Source: Streptomyces parvus (lineage in GTDB: Bacteria; Actinomycetota; Actinomycetes; Streptomycetales; Streptomycetaceae). Taken from it: a stretch of DNA of 64,000 nucleotides. A program made the position numbers and the translations under genes. How positions within the stretch are numbered: position 1 is the first letter of the stretch; each line of letters opens with the position of its first letter. The notes below the pieces were generated by a model, which saw nothing but the letters and a program-made list of their open reading frames with translations, did not search any database and had not been told where the DNA came from. Below are positions 27,576 to 37,889 of this stretch, in pieces. The stretch lies in the NCBI RefSeq assembly GCF_032121415.1, contig NZ_CP135079.1, positions 6,758,001-6,822,000 of the forward strand, read 5' to 3'.

Positions 27576-27837
27576 GCTCGACCTCCCCTCCCGCCGTTCC
27601 AGGGCGTTCCAGCCCCCCGAGAACACCCACGTCACCAGGGGTGGGACGGTTCCAGCCCGGCCGGAAGCCGTATCGCGCTTGTCCGGATCCGGGGCTCCGG
27701 CCCAGGCTGGTGCCCGTTCCACCCCGCCGCCGTACGGCCCCCGACGGGCTCCGTACGCCGCGGCGCGACGCCGTACGTACGAACGGCCGAACGGTACGCA
27801 CCACCTGACCGCACCATCCGAAACGGGGAACCTCACC

Positions 27838-28455
27838 ATGCGCAACCTCCGCACCGCCCTCCTCACCGTCATGGCCACGGGCCTGGCCGTCACCGCCCTG
27901 GCCCAGGTGCCGGCCGCCGCGGCCCCGGCACCCGCTCCCGTCCAGCCGAAGTTCCTGAGCGCGAGCCGGCTGCCCGCCTCCCACACCCCCTGGACGGCCG
28001 GTCCGGTACGCCAGGGCGTGCCGGCGGAGGGCTCCGTGTGCACCACCGGGATCGCCCCGGCGGCGGGCACCCGCCACCGGGACTTCCGCACCGAGCTGGA
28101 CACCAACGCCCGCCAGACCATCACGGTCGCCGCCACCACCGCCCAGGCCAAGAAGCTCGCCGCCGACCTGCGGAGCGCCCTGGAGACCTGCCTCGACCGG
28201 CTGAAGGAGCAGGAGTCCGGCCTGGAGGGAGAGGCGTTCTACCACGGCAGAATCGACGTCGAGGAGGGCGCGCACCTCTACAGCATCGACACGTCCTACC
28301 CGGAGGTCGGCTCCACCGACATCGGGCTGTTCTCCGTGGGCCGTGACGGCCGGGCCGTCACCGTCGTCGAGTGGGGGCAGATGGGCGAGCTGGACGGCGC
28401 TCCGCTGGAGGGGTTCCGGAAGACCACCCGTACCGCCGTCGCCAAGCTGTACTGA
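27838..28455 (+). CDS. Secreted protein of unknown function
   Basis: 205 aa. Sec signal peptide (MRNLRTALLTVMATGLAVTA, cleavage after A-x-A near residue 28). The mature part has two cysteines (in SVCTTG and ETCLDRL) likely forming one disulfide, and a beta-rich C-terminal half (LYSIDTSYPEVGSTDIGLFS, AVTVVEWGQMGEL). The pattern resembles the PknH-sensor/lipoprotein LpqH-like domain in a general way, but I cannot name it. Faces away from the membrane-HTH gene, suggesting a sensor-effector pair. Confidence 0.72.
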   Translation: MRNLRTALLTVMATGLAVTALAQVPAAAAPAPAPVQPKFLSASRLPASHTPWTAGPVRQGVPAEGSVCTTGIAPAAGTRHRDFRTELDTNARQTITVAATTAQAKKLAADLRSALETCLDRLKEQESGLEGEAFYHGRIDVEEGAHLYSIDTSYPEVGSTDIGLFSVGRDGRAVTVVEWGQMGELDGAPLEGFRKTTRTAVAKLY

Positions 28456-28537
28456 TCCCGCGAGAGGCGACCGGCCGTCGGGGGGCGGCCGGTCGCCGGA
28501 GGTGCGGGGTGCCCAGGACCGGGAGCATGCTGGCTGT

Positions 28538-31198
28538 GTGACCCGGCACGATACGCCCCGGTCTTCCCCGCCCGGCGGACACGGGACCGTCGCCGGGGCG
28601 GCAGACGTCGGCCGTGTGCCGGACGAGTTCTCCCGCGCCGGGGCGGCAGACGTCGGCCGTGTGCCGGACGAGCTCTCCCTCGTCCTCGCCCAGGCCCTCG
28701 TCAGCGCCGTCGAGTCGAGCGACGGCTACGCGGGCGGCGTCTACCTGCGCAGCCGGACGCCCGGACTTCTCCGGCTCGCGGTGCTCGCCGGACTGCCGGG
28801 CCCGCTGTTCCGGCCCTGGTGGCGGATGCATGTGAACCGCCCCTTCCCGGTCTCCGAGGCCTACCGCTCGGGGCGGCCCGTACTGCTCTCCGACGCGGAG
28901 GAGGCCATGCGCCGCTTCCCGCAGCTGATGGCCGGGCTGCCGTTCCCGTTCGGTTCGCTGTGGGTGCCGATCACCGGGCCCCGGGGAAGCATGGGCGTAC
29001 TGGCCGTCCTGCGGGCCTCCACGCCGGGGCAGCCCGTCGCCCCCGCCGACGGCGAACGGCTCCTCCGCCTGGGCCGCCGGCTCGGCGCCGCGCTCACCGA
29101 TCTGGAGGGACGGGGCGTCGACTGCCTGTGGGAGACCGAGCCGGTCCCCGTGCAACTGCCCGCCGCCACCACGCCCCCGGTGCGCGTCGGCCGCTTCGAC
29201 TGGGACCTGCACTCCGGGCAGGTCGCCGCCGACGACGAACTCTGCGCGATCCTCGGCTTCGAGCCCGCCGCCTTCCCGGGCACCGTCGACGCGCTCGCCG
29301 AACGGCTGGTCCCCGAGGACGTGTACGGGCTGTGGGCCCTGGCCCGGCAGACGGTGGAGTCCGCCGAACCGGTCGTCCGCCGGATGCGGCTGCGCGGCCC
29401 CGACGGCCGGTCCCATCTGCTGGAGCTGTCCGGCCGCTGGACGCACCCGGACGGCGATGTGTCCGCCAGCCATCTGACCGGCTTCCTGGTCGACCTGGGC
29501 GCCGGCCCCGTCGTACCGGAGGCCGCCGACCGGCTGCCGCGGGGGATCCTCTCCCTGGACCGGCTGGGCCGGATCACGTACGCCAACGGCCTCGCCGAGG
29601 AACTGCTCGGCCACGCCCGTACGGAGCTGGTGGGCCATCCGGTGTGGCAGGCCCTGCCGTGGTTCGGGCACGAGGCCTACGAGGACCACTACCGGGCGGC
29701 TCTGATCGCCGACGAGCCCGTCCACTTCCTCGCGCGGCGCCCGCCCGCACTCTGGCTGTCGGTGTCCCTGTACCCCGGGCACGACGGGGTGAGCGTCGTC
29801 CTCCAGGCGACCGACCAGCCGGCCTACGCCCCCGGCTCCGTCACCGCGCCGGGGCTGGGCATCGGCTCGACCGCCGACCGTTCCTCCGCGCTGTACCGGC
29901 CGGTGGCGCTCGCCATCGCGCTGACCGAGGCGGTCACGGCCCGCCAGGTCTCCTCGGTGGTCACGGACGAGCTGCTGCCCGCGTTCGGCGGCCGTCAGCT
30001 CGCGATCTACCTGCTGAACGAACGCCACCTCCACCTGGCCTGGGAGACGGGGTTCCCCAAGGGGTTCCTCGACCGCTTCGACGGGGTCGGGCTCGACGTC
30101 AGCATCCCCGGGGTGGAGACCCTCACCACGGGCCGCCCGATCTTCTTCGAGTCCATGCAGCGCCTGGCCGAGGCCTATCCGGGCATCCCGATCGACACGG
30201 ACGTCGGGGCGCGGGCGTTCCTGCCGCTCATCGCCTCGGGACGGCCCGTCGGCTCCTGCATCCTCGGCTTCGACCGGCCGCGCGGCTTCAGCCCGGAGGA
30301 GCGTACGGTCCTGACGGCCCTGGCCGGGCTGATCGCGCAGGCCCTGCAGCGCGCCCAGCGCTACGACAGCGAGTCGGCGCTCGCCCGCGGGCTCCAGGAC
30401 GCCCTGCTGCCGCACCGGCTGCCCGAGGTGGACGGGGTGGACACGCTGGGACGCTATCTCTCCGGTACCCAGGGCATGGACGTGGGCGGCGACTGGTACG
30501 ACGTCATCGAGACCGGCCACGAACTCGCCCTGGTCATCGGGGATGTGCAGGGCCACGGCGTTTCCGCCGCCGCGACGATGGGACAACTGCGCAGTGCGGT
30601 GCGGGCGTTCGCGCTGAGCAAGCACGATCCGCAGGAGGTGATGAGCGGCACGAACCGGCTGCTCATCGACCTCGACCCGGGCCAGTTCGCGAGCTGCTGC
30701 TACATCGCCCTCGACCCGGCGACCGGCGTGGCCCGTGCCGTACGGGCGGGCCATCCGCAGCCCGTGCTGCGGCGGCCCGACGGCCGGACGGAGGTGCTGG
30801 ACCTGCCCGGTGGCATCGTGCTCGGGATCGACGGGGACGCGGCCTACCCGGTCACGGAGATGCGGCTCGAACCGGGAGCGATGCTGGCCCTGTTCACGGA
30901 CGGGCTGATCGAGCGTCCGGGGACGGACATCGACGAGGGCGTCGAGCGGTTGCGCGCCACCGTCGAACGCATCGGCGCCGTCCCCCTGGCCGAGACGGCC
31001 GACCAGGTCATCGGCGAGGCGAGGGCGGCCACCGACCGCCCCGACGACATCGCCCTCCTGCTCGCCGCCCGGTGGGCCGAGGCCCCTCGGGCCGCCCGGC
31101 GCCCCCGGACGGCGCAGGAACCCGGGCCCGATCTGTGGCGCACGTTCAGGAGGCCGGACCCGGGGCGTACGACGGGTGCCCCGGATCCGGCCTCCTAG
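28538..31198 (+). CDS. PAS/GAF-domain SpoIIE-type PP2C phosphatase
   Basis: 886 aa, soluble. N-terminal GAF-like region (~50-190), PAS-like region (~215-330, VGRFDWDLHSGQVAADDEL), second PAS (~345-450, GILSLDRLGRITYANGLAEE), GAF (~480-630), and C-terminal PP2C_SIG/SpoIIE phosphatase (~640-860: GMDVGGDWYDVIE, VIGDVQGHGVSAAATM, LFTDGLIER, DDIALLLAA) with the acidic metal ligands in place. Such proteins dephosphorylate anti-anti-sigma factors, controlling sigma-B-like stress responses. GTG start with CATGCT 6 nt upstream and no ribosome site, so probably leaderless. Residues ~19-48 contain a recent 15-residue tandem duplication. Confidence 0.9.
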   Translation: MTRHDTPRSSPPGGHGTVAGAADVGRVPDEFSRAGAADVGRVPDELSLVLAQALVSAVESSDGYAGGVYLRSRTPGLLRLAVLAGLPGPLFRPWWRMHVNRPFPVSEAYRSGRPVLLSDAEEAMRRFPQLMAGLPFPFGSLWVPITGPRGSMGVLAVLRASTPGQPVAPADGERLLRLGRRLGAALTDLEGRGVDCLWETEPVPVQLPAATTPPVRVGRFDWDLHSGQVAADDELCAILGFEPAAFPGTVDALAERLVPEDVYGLWALARQTVESAEPVVRRMRLRGPDGRSHLLELSGRWTHPDGDVSASHLTGFLVDLGAGPVVPEAADRLPRGILSLDRLGRITYANGLAEELLGHARTELVGHPVWQALPWFGHEAYEDHYRAALIADEPVHFLARRPPALWLSVSLYPGHDGVSVVLQATDQPAYAPGSVTAPGLGIGSTADRSSALYRPVALAIALTEAVTARQVSSVVTDELLPAFGGRQLAIYLLNERHLHLAWETGFPKGFLDRFDGVGLDVSIPGVETLTTGRPIFFESMQRLAEAYPGIPIDTDVGARAFLPLIASGRPVGSCILGFDRPRGFSPEERTVLTALAGLIAQALQRAQRYDSESALARGLQDALLPHRLPEVDGVDTLGRYLSGTQGMDVGGDWYDVIETGHELALVIGDVQGHGVSAAATMGQLRSAVRAFALSKHDPQEVMSGTNRLLIDLDPGQFASCCYIALDPATGVARAVRAGHPQPVLRRPDGRTEVLDLPGGIVLGIDGDAAYPVTEMRLEPGAMLALFTDGLIERPGTDIDEGVERLRATVERIGAVPLAETADQVIGEARAATDRPDDIALLLAARWAEAPRAARRPRTAQEPGPDLWRTFRRPDPGRTTGAPDPAS
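28592..28681 (+). repeat. 45-bp in-frame tandem duplication
   Basis: Two copies (28592-28636, 28637-28681) differ at only two bases and encode AGAADVGRVPDEFSR and AGAADVGRVPDELSL near the N-terminus of the phosphatase. 45 bp is in frame, so the gene stays open. Confidence 0.9.
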
Positions 31199-33231: not shown

Positions 33232-34068
33232 ATGCCCGCACTGGGTAAGCACCGTCGTCCCAAGTCCATCTCGCTCGGCCGCGGCCTCGCCGCCGTGACC
33301 ACCGGTGGAGCCGTTCTCGCCCTCCCGGTGATCGGTGCCACCAGCGCCTTCGCCGCTCCTGCCCCCGCCGCCGCGGCGCAGGCCGTGGCGCCCGCCGCGG
33401 TGGTCGCCCAGGCGAATCCCGCCGCGAAGGCCGCCCCCGCCAAGCATTCCGTGATGGCCGGCGAAACGCTTTCCAAGATCGCTCGCGAGCATTCCGTCAG
33501 CGGCGGCTGGAAGAAGCTGTACGAAGGAAACCGGAAGATCATCGGATCGAATCCCGATCTCATTCACCCGGGTATCAAGCTGGACATCGGAGTCACGTCC
33601 GATGCCTCGTCGGACGGTAAGACCTCCAAGGCTTCTCCGTCCGCCGCGCGCGGCGCTTCGGCGGACCGCGCCGACCGTTCGGAGCGCATCAACGCCGCCC
33701 CCGTGGCAAAGGCCGCTCCGGCCGCCGAGAAGAAGGTCGTCACCTACACGAACGACCTCGACGGCTGGATCCGGGAATCGCTGGCGATCATGGCGGAGCA
33801 GGGCATCCCCGGCACCTACGAGGGCATCCACCGCAACATCATGCGCGAGTCCTCCGGCAACCCGGCCGCCATCAACAACTGGGACTCCAACGCGGTCAAG
33901 GGCACCCCGTCCAAGGGGCTGCTCCAGGTCATCGACCCGACGTTCCAGGCCTACCACGTGCCCGGCACCTCGACCGACAGCTACGACCCGGTCGCCAACA
34001 TCACGGCCGCGTGCAACTACGCGGCGGACCGCTACGGCTCGATCGACAACGTCTTCGGCGCCTACTGA
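33232..34068 (+). CDS. Secreted LysM + lytic transglycosylase-like hydrolase (Swl-type)
   Basis: 278 aa. Long N-terminal signal peptide (to A-F-A-A-P near residue 42), one LysM peptidoglycan-binding domain (~72-120: KHSVMAGETLSKIAREHSV, NPDLIHPGIKLDIG), an Ala/Ser linker, and a C-terminal transglycosylase-like domain (~172-278) with the likely catalytic Glu in NIMRESSGNPAAINNWDSNA and SKGLLQVIDPTFQAY. AGAGGA lies ~7 nt before the ATG. Cuts peptidoglycan outside the cell during germination or growth, under c-di-AMP riboswitch control. Closed by a strong terminator. Confidence 0.92.
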   Translation: MPALGKHRRPKSISLGRGLAAVTTGGAVLALPVIGATSAFAAPAPAAAAQAVAPAAVVAQANPAAKAAPAKHSVMAGETLSKIAREHSVSGGWKKLYEGNRKIIGSNPDLIHPGIKLDIGVTSDASSDGKTSKASPSAARGASADRADRSERINAAPVAKAAPAAEKKVVTYTNDLDGWIRESLAIMAEQGIPGTYEGIHRNIMRESSGNPAAINNWDSNAVKGTPSKGLLQVIDPTFQAYHVPGTSTDSYDPVANITAACNYAADRYGSIDNVFGAY

Positions 34069-34227: not shown

Positions 34228-34653
34228 TCACATGAACGACAATGACATGCAGGACAGCGGGGCCAAGGGTGTTTCGCGTCGAAGATTCATCACTGGAACA
34301 GGTTCTTTTCTGGGAGCCGCGGCGATCGTCGGGCACGTCCCCCGGGAGGGCGTGACGACCACCGCACCGGCCCGGATCGCCCGGCCGATGTCGGCCAGGG
34401 CGTCATCGGGACGGATGTCGCCGGACGCCGTGTAGACCACCGCCCGGGGGCGGGAGGCCAGGACGGCGCCGATGCCGTCGGTGGCCGCGACCCCGAGCGG
34501 GTGCCCGAGACCGCCGAGTTCGCCCGCGTCGCGGCCGACCTTGGCGGGACCGTGCACGAGGACGGCGGCGAGCGTCAGTGCCGGAGGGGCCTCGACGGCG
34601 CGGACCGCCGCGCGGCCGACGTTGCCGGTACCCCAGACAACCGTGGGAATCAT
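34228..34653 (-). pseudogene. 5' fragment of NAD(P)-binding dihydrodipicolinate-reductase-like dehydrogenase
   Basis: Starts MIPTVVWGTGNVGRAAVRAV, a Rossmann fold, and continues GELGGLGHPLGVAATDGIGA, PRAVVYTASGD and RAGAVVVTPS up to about residue 103. The family should be ~350 aa, yet from there the frame reads antisense through the Tat-signal fragment and stops at 34228. The break lies between about 34331 and 34347. Both this gene and its convergent neighbour have lost their 3' portions, as expected from one deletion across two convergent genes. Confidence 0.7.
34231..34443 (+). pseudogene. 5' fragment of a Tat-exported protein, truncated by a deletion
   Basis: Begins with a good ribosome site (GAGGGACG) and ATG, and encodes a twin-arginine signal: SRRRFITGTGSFLGAAAIVG. 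After about residue 37 the sequence becomes the antisense of the leftward dehydrogenase fragment and loses any protein character, running to an accidental stop at 34443. Codon use in 34231-34335 is also less GC-biased than its neighbours. I read it as the first ~35 codons of a secreted enzyme whose remainder was deleted. Confidence 0.6.
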
Positions 34654-34773: not shown

Positions 34774-37725
34774 TCAGCGCTTCGCGCGGGCGCCGTTCGG
34801 GGTGCCGGAGATCGTGAACTGCGAACCCGGCTCGATCAGCACATGGTCGTCGCGCGAGTCGGTGATCGTCACGTCGGTGAGCGTCGCATTGCCGCGTGCG
34901 CCGCCCATCGCGAGGATGCCGGAGCCGTTGTTGGACGAGTCGATCCGCACGTTCTGGATCTTGACGTCCGGCATCAGGCCGCCACCCGTCTTGAACTGGA
35001 TGCCGTCGTAGGTGGAGTCGACGATGTCCGTGTCGCGGATCGTGACTCCGGGGATCGGCAGATTCTGCGGGAAGAGGGTGATCGCACCGAACTCCTGGTC
35101 CTCGTTCCAGAAGGCTCCGCCGGTGCGGTACAGGCCGTTGTTGGCGATCAGCGTCTGCCCGGAGAAGGGCAGCGGATCGTGGTCGGTCGCCAGCATGATG
35201 GCCGGGTAGTTCATGGTGTCGGAGATCAGGTTGTTCTCGATCTTGTTGCCGTGACCGCCGTAGATCGCGATGCCGTTGGCGCGCCACGGGAGCTGGATGG
35301 TGTTGTTGCGGAAGCTGTTGTCGTGGCCGATGTCGACGGTCTGGTCCTTGACGTACTTGCTGGACCAGACGGCGAGCGCGTCGTCGCCGGTGTTGCGGAA
35401 CGATGAGTTGTAGACCGTGGAGTTCCGGGTGCCGTTGGCGAAGTTGATGCCGTCCGCGTACGTGTTGCGGATCCGCATGCCGGTGAACTCGACGCCGTCG
35501 CCCGGGTTCCACAGCTCCTGGATGTTGTCGAAGTCGCGGCCGGCCCAGACACCCACGTTGGCGTGCTCGATCCAGACATTGCTGATCTTCGTGTCCTTGC
35601 CGAACCGGCCGTTGAGCGCGACGCCGCCCTCGTGGTTGCCGTCACCGCCGCGGATCGTGCCCGAACCGAATATGGCGATGTCGGAGATTTGCGTGTTCTC
35701 GTCGATGTCGAAACCGAAGTTGCCCTCGTGCGGGTGGTTGATACCGCCCGCTTCATGCGGCGGGGTCAGCGTGTAGAGCTGGGAGTGCCACATGCCCGCG
35801 CCCCGGATCGTCACGTCCCGGATGCCGACCTGGTTCCACTGGCCCCGGTCGAGCGGGTCGTCGGTGAGGATCTTCTGCTCCTGGCGCCACTGGCCCGCCG
35901 GGATCCAGACGCAGTCGATCCGGCCGTTCTGGTTGGCCGTCACCGCGCGCTGGATGGCGGCCGTGTCGTCGAGCCCGTCGTTCGCCACCGCGCCGTACGT
36001 CGTGATGGAGACACAGCCGGACGGCTGCGAGGAGGGCGCCGCCACCTGCTCCAGGTCTATCAGGTCGATGATGTGGAAGGCGGCGTTGTCGCTCGCGTCG
36101 CGCTGGAGGCGGAACTCCGTTCCCGCCGGGTAGGTCTCGGTGAGCAGGGCGTGGGACTCGTCGAACAGCCGCCGCGCGTCGCCGCCCGGAGTGTTGGTGA
36201 GCCCCTCGGGGCTGTCGGTGTTCCCGTACAGCCAGCTGTGCTTCGAGGAGAGGCCGAGTTTGCGGACGAACTCGCCGTCGGCGTACAGGCTGATGGTCGC
36301 ATCGCGGCCGCCGCCGCCCGGCGCGTCCGGGATGGAGTTGCGGACGACGAGCGAGTTCGCCGGGGCGGTCGAGGTGAACTCCACGTAGTCACCGGTGGAG
36401 TTGAGCCGCACCGACTCGCGGCCGGAGGACTCGGTGGCGAAGTTGGTGTGCCCGAAGGTGCGTTCGGCGTCGGACTGGAGCAGTGTGCCCTTGTAGTCGG
36501 CCTTCTCCGCCTCCAGTTCGGTGTACGGGACGGCGGCGCCGCGTCCGACGACGATGGACCGGGCGAAGGTGTTGTTGGTCTCACTGGTCTCGGCGACCAG
36601 GTTCGTGGCGTCGGCGGTGGCGGTCAGGGTCGCGCCGCCGCTCGCCGCCGTCCAGCTGCCGCCGACCGTGACGTTCGCGGTCGCGCCCGCGGCGATGGCC
36701 GGGGTGGTGCCGTTGAGCGTGGTGGAACCGACGGTCAGCCGGGTGACCGTGCCCGCGTTCACCGCACTGGTGCCGCGGTTGTGCACCGCAACGGTGAAGG
36801 TGACCGCCGCGCCGACGGCCGGGTTGGCCGGGCTGGAGGTGATGGAGCGGGCCTCCAGGTCGGGGCCGGGGCTCTGACCGACCACGAGCGGGGAGGCGGT
36901 GGTGCGGCTGTTGTTGGTGTTGTCCGACTCGGCGACCGTGTCGGTCGGGTCCACCAGTGCCGAGACGGTGTACGCCCCCCGCGGCCGCTTGCCGACTTCG
37001 ACCGAGATCGGGGCCGAGGCCCCGGCCGCGAGGGGGCCGACCGGCGCGCTGCCCACGACCACGCCGCCCAGGCTCACATGGACGGCGGTCGCGGGGGAGG
37101 CGGCCGAGCCGGCGTTGCGGACGGTGCCCTCGACGGTGATGTCGTCCGTCTCGGACGGTGACGAGGGGCTCCAGGACAGCGCGCTGACGGTCAGGTCCGG
37201 GTTGGGAGCGGCCGTCCCGAAGACCTGGATCTCGGCGATCTGGGCGCCGGGAGCCTCGGTGTTGGAGAAGAACTTCAGCTGGAGGTCGGCGACCCGGCCG
37301 TCCACCGGGATGGTCACCGTGTTCCGGTTGGAGCCGGGGTTGAACACATAGCCGGCGCGGGTGCGCAGCGAGGTGAACGCAGTGCCGCCCTGCGCCCGGC
37401 CGAGCACTTGGATGTCCTGCGTGCGGGTGGCCCAGATCGGGTCCGGGTTGAGCTTGAGGACCACGGAGTCGAGGTCCGCGTCCGCGCCGAGCTTCACCGT
37501 CAGGTCGGCGGGGTGGCCGTTCGATTCCCAGTAGCTGTCGAGCCTGCCGTCGTTGGCGTTCGATGCCGGGTATCCGCCGTGCGATCCGCTGGCGGTGACG
37601 GTCTTGCCCCGCGCGAGGTCCGTGGCCTCAGCCGCGTTCGCGGTGACGGGCAGGAGCCCGGCGGAGATCAGTCCGGCTGCCAGCAGCCCGGCGACCGTCC
37701 GTCCGGTGAGTCGCTTCCATCTCAT
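34774..37725 (-). CDS. Secreted modular GH87-type alpha-1,3-glucanase (mutanase)
   Basis: 983 aa. Signal peptide (~1-31); F5/8C discoidin-like domain (~35-170); two CARDB domains (~176-283 and ~288-395, each with D-x-x-N-x-V-x-E-x-x-x-x-N-N); a CBM35-like domain (~400-560, ELEAEKADYKGTLLQSDAE); and a right-handed beta-helix (~570-980). Three aspartates, D758 (YADGINF), D781 and D782 (NTGDDALA), have the 23/24 spacing reported for the catalytic Asp trio of GH87 alpha-1,3-glucanase. Substrate: alpha-1,3-glucan, e.g. fungal wall or mutan. AGAGGTC precedes the ATG. Monocistronic, with an AT-rich promoter region at 37726-37850. Confidence 0.83.
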   Translation of the reverse strand: MRWKRLTGRTVAGLLAAGLISAGLLPVTANAAEATDLARGKTVTASGSHGGYPASNANDGRLDSYWESNGHPADLTVKLGADADLDSVVLKLNPDPIWATRTQDIQVLGRAQGGTAFTSLRTRAGYVFNPGSNRNTVTIPVDGRVADLQLKFFSNTEAPGAQIAEIQVFGTAAPNPDLTVSALSWSPSSPSETDDITVEGTVRNAGSAASPATAVHVSLGGVVVGSAPVGPLAAGASAPISVEVGKRPRGAYTVSALVDPTDTVAESDNTNNSRTTASPLVVGQSPGPDLEARSITSSPANPAVGAAVTFTVAVHNRGTSAVNAGTVTRLTVGSTTLNGTTPAIAAGATANVTVGGSWTAASGGATLTATADATNLVAETSETNNTFARSIVVGRGAAVPYTELEAEKADYKGTLLQSDAERTFGHTNFATESSGRESVRLNSTGDYVEFTSTAPANSLVVRNSIPDAPGGGGRDATISLYADGEFVRKLGLSSKHSWLYGNTDSPEGLTNTPGGDARRLFDESHALLTETYPAGTEFRLQRDASDNAAFHIIDLIDLEQVAAPSSQPSGCVSITTYGAVANDGLDDTAAIQRAVTANQNGRIDCVWIPAGQWRQEQKILTDDPLDRGQWNQVGIRDVTIRGAGMWHSQLYTLTPPHEAGGINHPHEGNFGFDIDENTQISDIAIFGSGTIRGGDGNHEGGVALNGRFGKDTKISNVWIEHANVGVWAGRDFDNIQELWNPGDGVEFTGMRIRNTYADGINFANGTRNSTVYNSSFRNTGDDALAVWSSKYVKDQTVDIGHDNSFRNNTIQLPWRANGIAIYGGHGNKIENNLISDTMNYPAIMLATDHDPLPFSGQTLIANNGLYRTGGAFWNEDQEFGAITLFPQNLPIPGVTIRDTDIVDSTYDGIQFKTGGGLMPDVKIQNVRIDSSNNGSGILAMGGARGNATLTDVTITDSRDDHVLIEPGSQFTISGTPNGARAKR

Positions 37726-37889
37726 GATGACCTCTGCTTCCACAATATTTGAGCCCACAAGTCAATCTTTTGCGGTCAGAGATTCACAGATTTCTGCGCC
37801 GTTTCGGATTTGTCAACGGTCTTCGCATGGCCATGTCATCCGGGCGCGTGACATGACGCGTTGTCAGGCAGCCGCCGACGAGAACCTGT

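What the first reader, a model, noticed from the sequence alone, without database searches (positions are those of the whole stretch)
34231..34653. Deletion scar: two convergent genes fused through their middles
A Tat-signal start on the plus strand and a dehydrogenase N-terminus on the minus strand each lose protein character at the same point (34331-34347). One deletion removing both 3' portions explains this. The lost Tat-exported enzyme is unknown.
Basis: partly seen in the sequence, partly recalled or inferred. Interest (0 to 1): 0.55.

Follow-up and report, generated by a model that had tools for sequence, protein, structure and literature searches.

The report
Deletion scar of a cholesterol-oxidase locus
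In this Streptomyces strain a single loss of about 2.8 kilobases removed nearly all of an exported cholesterol oxidase gene, a small neighbouring gene and most of a dehydrogenase gene, leaving the first parts of two facing genes joined; this is an ordinary, clearly resolved gene loss rather than a surprise.

Summary
The finding is real and its interpretation essentially right. All 22 relatives examined carry an intact block: a + strand Tat-exported cholesterol oxidase (547 aa in the reference) facing a - strand pair, a 159-aa CMD/AhpD-like gene and a 359-aa dehydrogenase of the DapB/2,4-diaminopentanoate-dehydrogenase type. In 9 of 22 both window flanking genes are there too. The window has about 37 codons of the oxidase joined to the first 103 codons of the dehydrogenase. 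The missing piece is 2,840 bp against the nearest relative, 2,832-2,884 bp over 11. The join lies at 34343|34344 with a 3-bp GGG overlap and no repeat or mobile element found at the edges. Of 391 other genus genomes, 117 have the dehydrogenase orthologue and none ends where the window's does. The missing sequence was not found elsewhere in the genome. Both sister genomes are intact, so the loss is derived. A side result is more interesting than the scar: the three genes lie together in 72 of 80 named loci, in two layouts, suggesting a functional unit.

The parts
33232..34068 (+). Left flanking gene: LysM plus lytic-transglycosylase-like secreted protein, 278 aa (label by eye, not from a family search)
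   Evidence: ORF; homologue found in 14 of 22 relative loci, in 2 of these (L077, L079) on the other side of the block
34232..34343 (+). Remnant of the cholesterol oxidase gene: start codon and Tat signal region, about 37 codons; nothing of the FAD-binding or catalytic part remains
   Evidence: (own genome matches query residues 1-38 here)
34343..34346 (.). Deletion junction 34343|34344; GGG at 34344-34346 is present at both ancestral edges in the nearest relative; about 2,840 bp missing
34344..34653 (-). Remnant of the dehydrogenase gene (DapB / 2,4-diaminopentanoate-dehydrogenase type): first 103 codons, without the C-terminal domain
34232..34435 (+). Open frame made by the join: Tat signal followed by antisense of the dehydrogenase, 67 aa
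   Evidence: tail aligns to relatives no better than shuffled tails
34228..34653 (-). Open frame made by the join: dehydrogenase residues 1-103 followed by 38 aa antisense to the signal region, 141 aa
   Evidence: tail aligns to relatives no better than shuffled tails
34774..37758 (-). Right flanking gene: large secreted protein, 994 aa, right-handed-repeat-like C-terminal part (label by eye)
   Evidence: ORF; homologue beside the block in 9 of 22 relative loci; in G311 it is split over two frames with one stop

Best explanation
In the line leading to this strain, after it split from its S. globisporus- and S. parvus-like sisters, one 2.84-kb stretch was lost, most likely when a double-strand break was repaired by end joining. 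The two breakpoints lie inside two convergent genes, so the 5' part of a Tat-exported cholesterol oxidase gene now meets the 5' part of a dehydrogenase gene, and the CMD/AhpD-like gene between them is gone. Shown: ancestral layout, size, breakpoint, single occurrence among the genomes searched, failure to find the missing sequence elsewhere in the genome, derived state on a tree. Inferred: the repair route, loss of this enzyme's activity, and lack of function of the two stubs.
For: Block intact (oxidase at least 535 of 547 aa, dehydrogenase at least 355 of 359, CMD-like at least 155 of 159, no stops) in 22 of 22 relatives examined. Loss of 2,832-2,884 bp against 11 of 11 relatives measured. 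117 of 391 other genus genomes have the dehydrogenase orthologue, 115 of these over at least 355 of 359 residues, 2 with frame changes; only the window stops at residue 106. 241 of 391 others have a strong oxidase match (E <= 1e-100), this genome none. Oxidase and dehydrogenase (protein) and 2,051 bases of the block (DNA) not found elsewhere in the genome apart from distant GMC proteins and two 46-47-base chance-level matches. The window sits in a 100/100 clade with two intact genomes. Private changes of the window in the dehydrogenase stub: 4, 5, 0 at codon positions 1, 2, 3, against 7, 5, 11 pooled over seven relatives (Fisher p 0.013); 9 in 306 sites against 8 in 828, 48 in 2,943 and 7 in 598 in intact neighbour genes. 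Two Ku-family genes in the genome.
Against: The 3-bp overlap is what 7.4% of random joins give, so the repair route is not shown. Zero third-position changes is fewer than neutral decay predicts (p 0.026 for 0 of 9), and against the LysM gene the codon-position contrast is not significant (p 0.08); the decay signal is post hoc and suggestive. No reads were available, so an assembly error is not formally excluded, and no second strain of the species was examined.
Confidence: 0.96

Rival explanations
1. Assembly or sequencing error: the block is present in the organism but was collapsed in the assembly.
For: No reads were available to test it.
Against: The genome is in 2 contigs at 100% completeness. 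No repeat joins the two edges: 3 bp at the join, and the longest exact word shared within 40 bp of the edges is 7 bases, out of register with the join. No stray copy of the missing DNA was found in the assembly. The stub carries nine private changes, all at codon positions 1 and 2.
Confidence: 0.03
2. The short state is ancestral, and the three-gene block was inserted in the relatives.
For: The block is patchy in the genus: 117 of 391 others have the dehydrogenase orthologue.
Against: The remaining pieces are the 5' ends of two genes whose full forms occur across Streptomyces and other actinobacterial genera. An insertion would have had to complete both genes at once. The 11 other rows of the tree are all intact, including both sisters.
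Confidence: 0.005
3. The stubs still act: an exported 67-aa peptide, or a 141-aa nucleotide-binding half-domain protein, kept by selection after the deletion.
For: Both frames are open.
Against: The tails of the fused frames align to 108 related loci no better than shuffled tails. Nine of nine private changes in the dehydrogenase stub and three of three in the Tat stub hit codon positions 1-2, the opposite of purifying selection.
Confidence: 0.02

Closest known systems
End-joining deletion scars in Streptomyces chromosomes
   Same: Single clean join without long homology, in a genome with Ku genes; in S. ambofaciens, scars after induced breaks show signatures of classical end joining (PMC5869714, passages seen).
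   Different: Here the event is natural, its repair route is inferred, and it happens to join two convergent genes through their interiors.
GMC-type cholesterol oxidase (PDB 1COY Brevibacterium type; 1B4V Streptomyces SA-COO type; these type names are recalled)
   Same: The intact gene of G227 matches 1COY over residues 49-547 of 547 (E 7.9e-219), with the FAE, YHPLGG and VNPF segments kept (that these hold the catalytic residues is recalled).
   Different: Nearer to 1COY than to 1B4V (731 against 611 bits); in the window only the signal region is left.
2,4-diaminopentanoate dehydrogenase / DapB-like amine dehydrogenases
   Same: The intact relative matches DAP_DH_C over its cut-off and DapB_N just under it, and NF040740 (E 2.6e-22).
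   Different: Far below the NCBIfam cut-off (79.7 against 400 bits), so probably a distinct subfamily; no function tested.

Membership tests
Deletion pseudogene (gene remnants at one breakpoint) | Relatives carry the full genes | tested here: met
   22 of 22 relatives examined; both flanking genes also beside the block in 9 of 22
Deletion pseudogene (gene remnants at one breakpoint) | Single continuous loss, derived in this lineage | tested here: met
Deletion pseudogene (gene remnants at one breakpoint) | Loss of coding constraint in the remnant | tested here: inconclusive
   9 of 9 private changes at positions 1-2, small number, post hoc
Microhomology-mediated end joining | Breakpoint overlap longer than chance | tested here: not met
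   3 bp; 7.4% of random joins reach it
Recombination between direct repeats, or mobile-element excision | Repeat or element at both edges | tested here: not met
   3 bp at the join; longest exact shared word within 40 bp is 7 bases, out of register; no pairing of the edges among the 20 repeat families shown of 40
GMC cholesterol oxidase (the lost gene, judged on intact relatives) | Full-length similarity to solved cholesterol oxidases with the catalytic Glu/His/Asn segments | tested here: met
   which residues are catalytic is recalled
GMC cholesterol oxidase (the lost gene, judged on intact relatives) | Score above the cut-off of the NCBIfam cholesterol oxidase model NF058674 | tested here: not met
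   93.2 against 850 bits; the model fits another branch better (551.1 bits for the own-genome protein on C2)
GMC cholesterol oxidase (the lost gene, judged on intact relatives) | Oxidises cholesterol | not testable with these tools
   needs an enzyme assay

The most novel reading that the evidence does not exclude
The deleted block is a true functional unit, not three chance neighbours: a Tat-exported 1COY-type cholesterol oxidase, a CMD/AhpD-like protein and an uncharacterised DapB/DAPDH-like dehydrogenase lie together in 72 of 80 named loci, in two layouts (convergent in 63, all on one strand in 9 loci of Nonomuraea, Microtetraspora, Planobispora, Planotetraspora and Streptosporangium), so they probably act in one undescribed sterol- or peroxide-linked pathway, and this strain is a natural knockout of it.
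Probability: 0.5. Interest if true: 0.4.

Novelty: new member of a known kind. Interest (0 to 1): 0.22.

Why it matters
It is a well-resolved example of single-step loss of a conserved gene block, with ancestral layout, breakpoint and position on the tree all visible. It gives a natural null strain for asking what the cholesterol oxidase, CMD-like and dehydrogenase block does in Streptomyces. It also warns that gene callers may report two spurious proteins here.

Tried and rejected
Direct repeats or a mobile element at the edges: none found. A 7-base word, GGGCGTG, occurs at both edges but four bases out of register with the join; not pursued. Missing DNA moved elsewhere in the genome: not found (one search tested 2,051 of about 2,840 bases). 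The junction in other genus members: DNA matches that ran across it in G228, G062, G337, G105 and G151 were fetched and are intact loci; G349's crossing match was not fetched, but its dehydrogenase (27699-28769) and oxidase (29357-30976) are full length and adjacent. One search did not list all its matches. Homologues of the fused frames: alignments crossing the junction exist but do not exceed shuffled-tail controls; the counts mix separate places and are replaced.

Backup cholesterol oxidase: the own genome has further GMC-type matches (one, C2:5911726-5911908, was not examined). Of the two examined, the one on C2 (L083) fits the NCBIfam cholesterol oxidase model over its full length under the cut-off (551.1 of 850 bits), the one on C1 (L082) fits it weakly (99 bits) (L082), so sterol oxidation by another enzyme is not excluded. 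An exact 40-base junction pattern in the named genome collection gave nothing (that collection may leave out the window's own genome or one very near it). Literature: no paper in the held library had the terms cholesterol oxidase, carboxymuconolactone decarboxylase and dihydrodipicolinate reductase together; a search with five terms on class I enzymes gave none; two searches gave listings from which nothing was used.

Slips of my own: the Tat stub was numbered from 34231, one base early, so its codon positions were mislabelled; one search repeats it from 34232 (2, 1, 0). In one search the codon positions of the Tat stub, the large flanking gene and the oxidoreductase gene were mislabelled; replace them.

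Full report
What is there. On the + strand a frame from 34232 encodes a Tat-type N-terminus and ends after 67 aa; on the - strand a frame from 34653 encodes a DapB-like N-terminus and runs to 34228. They overlap, and both lose similarity to relatives at the same place.

Ancestral state. A DNA search of 60 relatives plus the own genome showed the two halves as separate matches about 2.8-2.9 kb apart in G005, G019, G024, G032, G015 and G004. The fetched stretch of G005 holds, in order, the LysM gene, a 547-aa oxidase on +, a 159-aa CMD-like gene and a 359-aa dehydrogenase on -, then the large flanking gene. Twenty-two relative loci were examined with protein queries; 22 of 22 hold oxidase, CMD-like gene and dehydrogenase at near full length without stops. 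Beside the block, the LysM gene was found in 14 of 22 and the large flanking gene in 9 of 22; all 9 have both. In L077 and L079 the LysM gene lies on the dehydrogenase side.

Who the genes are. The oxidase matches solved cholesterol oxidases over its mature length, best 1COY (E 8.6e-222 for G005, 7.9e-219 for G227), and Pfam GMC domains. The dehydrogenase matches DAP_DH_C and, just under the cut-off, DapB_N, and solved DapB- and amine-dehydrogenase-type proteins weakly. The small gene is weakly CMD/AhpD-like, under the cut-offs. The window keeps none of the oxidase's FAD-binding part, which begins near residue 58, and keeps the dehydrogenase to residue 103, short of the C-terminal domain matched from 144.

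Breakpoint. Against 11 relatives (L024, L066-L075) the loss is 2,832, 2,840, 2,841, 2,871, 2,851, 2,841, 2,871, 2,869, 2,884, 2,857 and 2,841 bp with the join set at 34343|34344. In G227 (L066) GGG at 34344-34346 occurs at both edges. Random joins in the same stretch share 3 or more bases in 7.4% of draws, so the overlap neither proves nor excludes use of microhomology. A 7-base word occurs at both edges but out of register. The genome has two Ku-family genes. In S. ambofaciens, scars after induced breaks show signatures of classical end joining (PMC5869714; passages seen, not the whole paper).

How common. The genus sample is 392 genomes with the own one. By DNA, 115 of 392, the own included, match the scar region (its match list was cut). 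By dehydrogenase protein 121 of 392 match; without the own genome and three with distant relatives only (G014, G252, G278), 117 of 391 have the orthologue, 115 over at least 355 of 359 residues; G248 and G274 are broken by frame changes between residues 54 and 76. A genome with only the window's stub would have been listed, since the stub itself scores 1.1e-49 against the limit of 1e-30. By oxidase protein 241 of 391 others match at E <= 1e-100: a group at 72% identity or more and, in the rows listed, a group near 52-55%; the own genome has neither (list cut), its best match elsewhere being E 3.9e-10. In 95 fetched loci with both gene starts, some genomes in twice, the starts are 1,587-3,426 bp apart; in the window they are 421 apart. 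Other damage was seen: G078 has a frame change in the oxidase, and G343 and G002 hold the two-gene pair without the oxidase in the stretch fetched (in G002 the contig begins 1,955 bases beyond the pair).

Polarity and age. A tree of the left flank (12 rows, about 2.2 kb) groups the window with G227 and G311 at 100/100; both are intact, as are the other nine. That the window is a Streptomyces follows from these. The loss lies on the window's end branch, 0.037 changes per site. The window's private changes in the dehydrogenase stub are nine in 306 sites, 4, 5, 0 by codon position; seven relatives pooled give 7, 5, 11 there (p 0.013). Intact neighbours of the window give 11, 9, 28 in 2,943 sites (p 0.002) and 1, 0, 6 in 598 (p 0.0009), but the LysM gene 4, 1, 3 in 828 (p 0.08). 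This fits loss of constraint but rests on nine changes chosen after the fact.

Fused frames. The tails of both new frames align across the junction in some relatives, at the separate intact genes; identity after the junction averages 0.22-0.23 for the - frame and 0.33-0.36 for the + frame. Fifteen shuffled tails each give 0-91 such loci for the - frame and 0-87 for the + frame over the two settings, ranges that enclose the real 24 and 9, and 55 and 10. So there is no sign that the fused frames are conserved proteins.

The block as a unit. A protein search in the named genome collection kept the best 80 of 377 loci that encode the oxidase. In 72 of 80 a dehydrogenase (340 aa or more matched) and a CMD-like gene (140 or more) lie beside it: 63 convergent, as in the window's ancestor, including an Actinomadura and an Actinophytocola locus, and 9 on one strand in the order dehydrogenase, CMD-like, oxidase. 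In 8 of 80 they were absent from the stretch. Flanks were at most 4.5 kb and the 80 were chosen by similarity, so this is no unbiased sample. Keeping company across a change of layout argues for a shared function; which one is open, and a link to the H2O2 made by the oxidase is a guess. Cholesterol oxidases at other loci have been tied to natamycin production (PMC10580950, start of abstract; not compared here) and proposed as fungal sensors (PMC6694107, passages seen; that enzyme is 82% identical to the SA-COO type according to the paper).

Verdict. A genuine, derived, single-event deletion scar, ordinary in kind. Interest is modest and lies mainly in the conserved block that it removed.

Noticed in passing
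L135, L136, L148, L153, L154, L155, L159, L166, L167: In nine loci of Nonomuraea, Microtetraspora, Planobispora, Planotetraspora and Streptosporangium the same three genes lie on one strand in the order dehydrogenase, CMD-like, cholesterol oxidase, unlike the convergent layout of Streptomyces.
   Followed up: partly
L168 (G248), L169 (G274), L171 (G078): Frame changes break the dehydrogenase in G248 and G274 and the oxidase in G078 and G248, so the block may erode independently in several lineages, or these are sequencing errors.
   Followed up: partly
L172 (G343), L173 (G002): The CMD-like and dehydrogenase genes are present without the cholesterol oxidase in the fetched stretch.
   Followed up: no
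L082:2889-4544 and L083:1514-3412 (own genome, contigs C1 and C2): Two further GMC oxidoreductases; the C2 one follows an aldehyde-dehydrogenase-like frame (label by eye) and fits the NCBIfam cholesterol oxidase model at full length but under the cut-off.
   Followed up: partly
L069 (G311): The large right-hand flanking gene is split over two frames with one stop in this relative.
   Followed up: no
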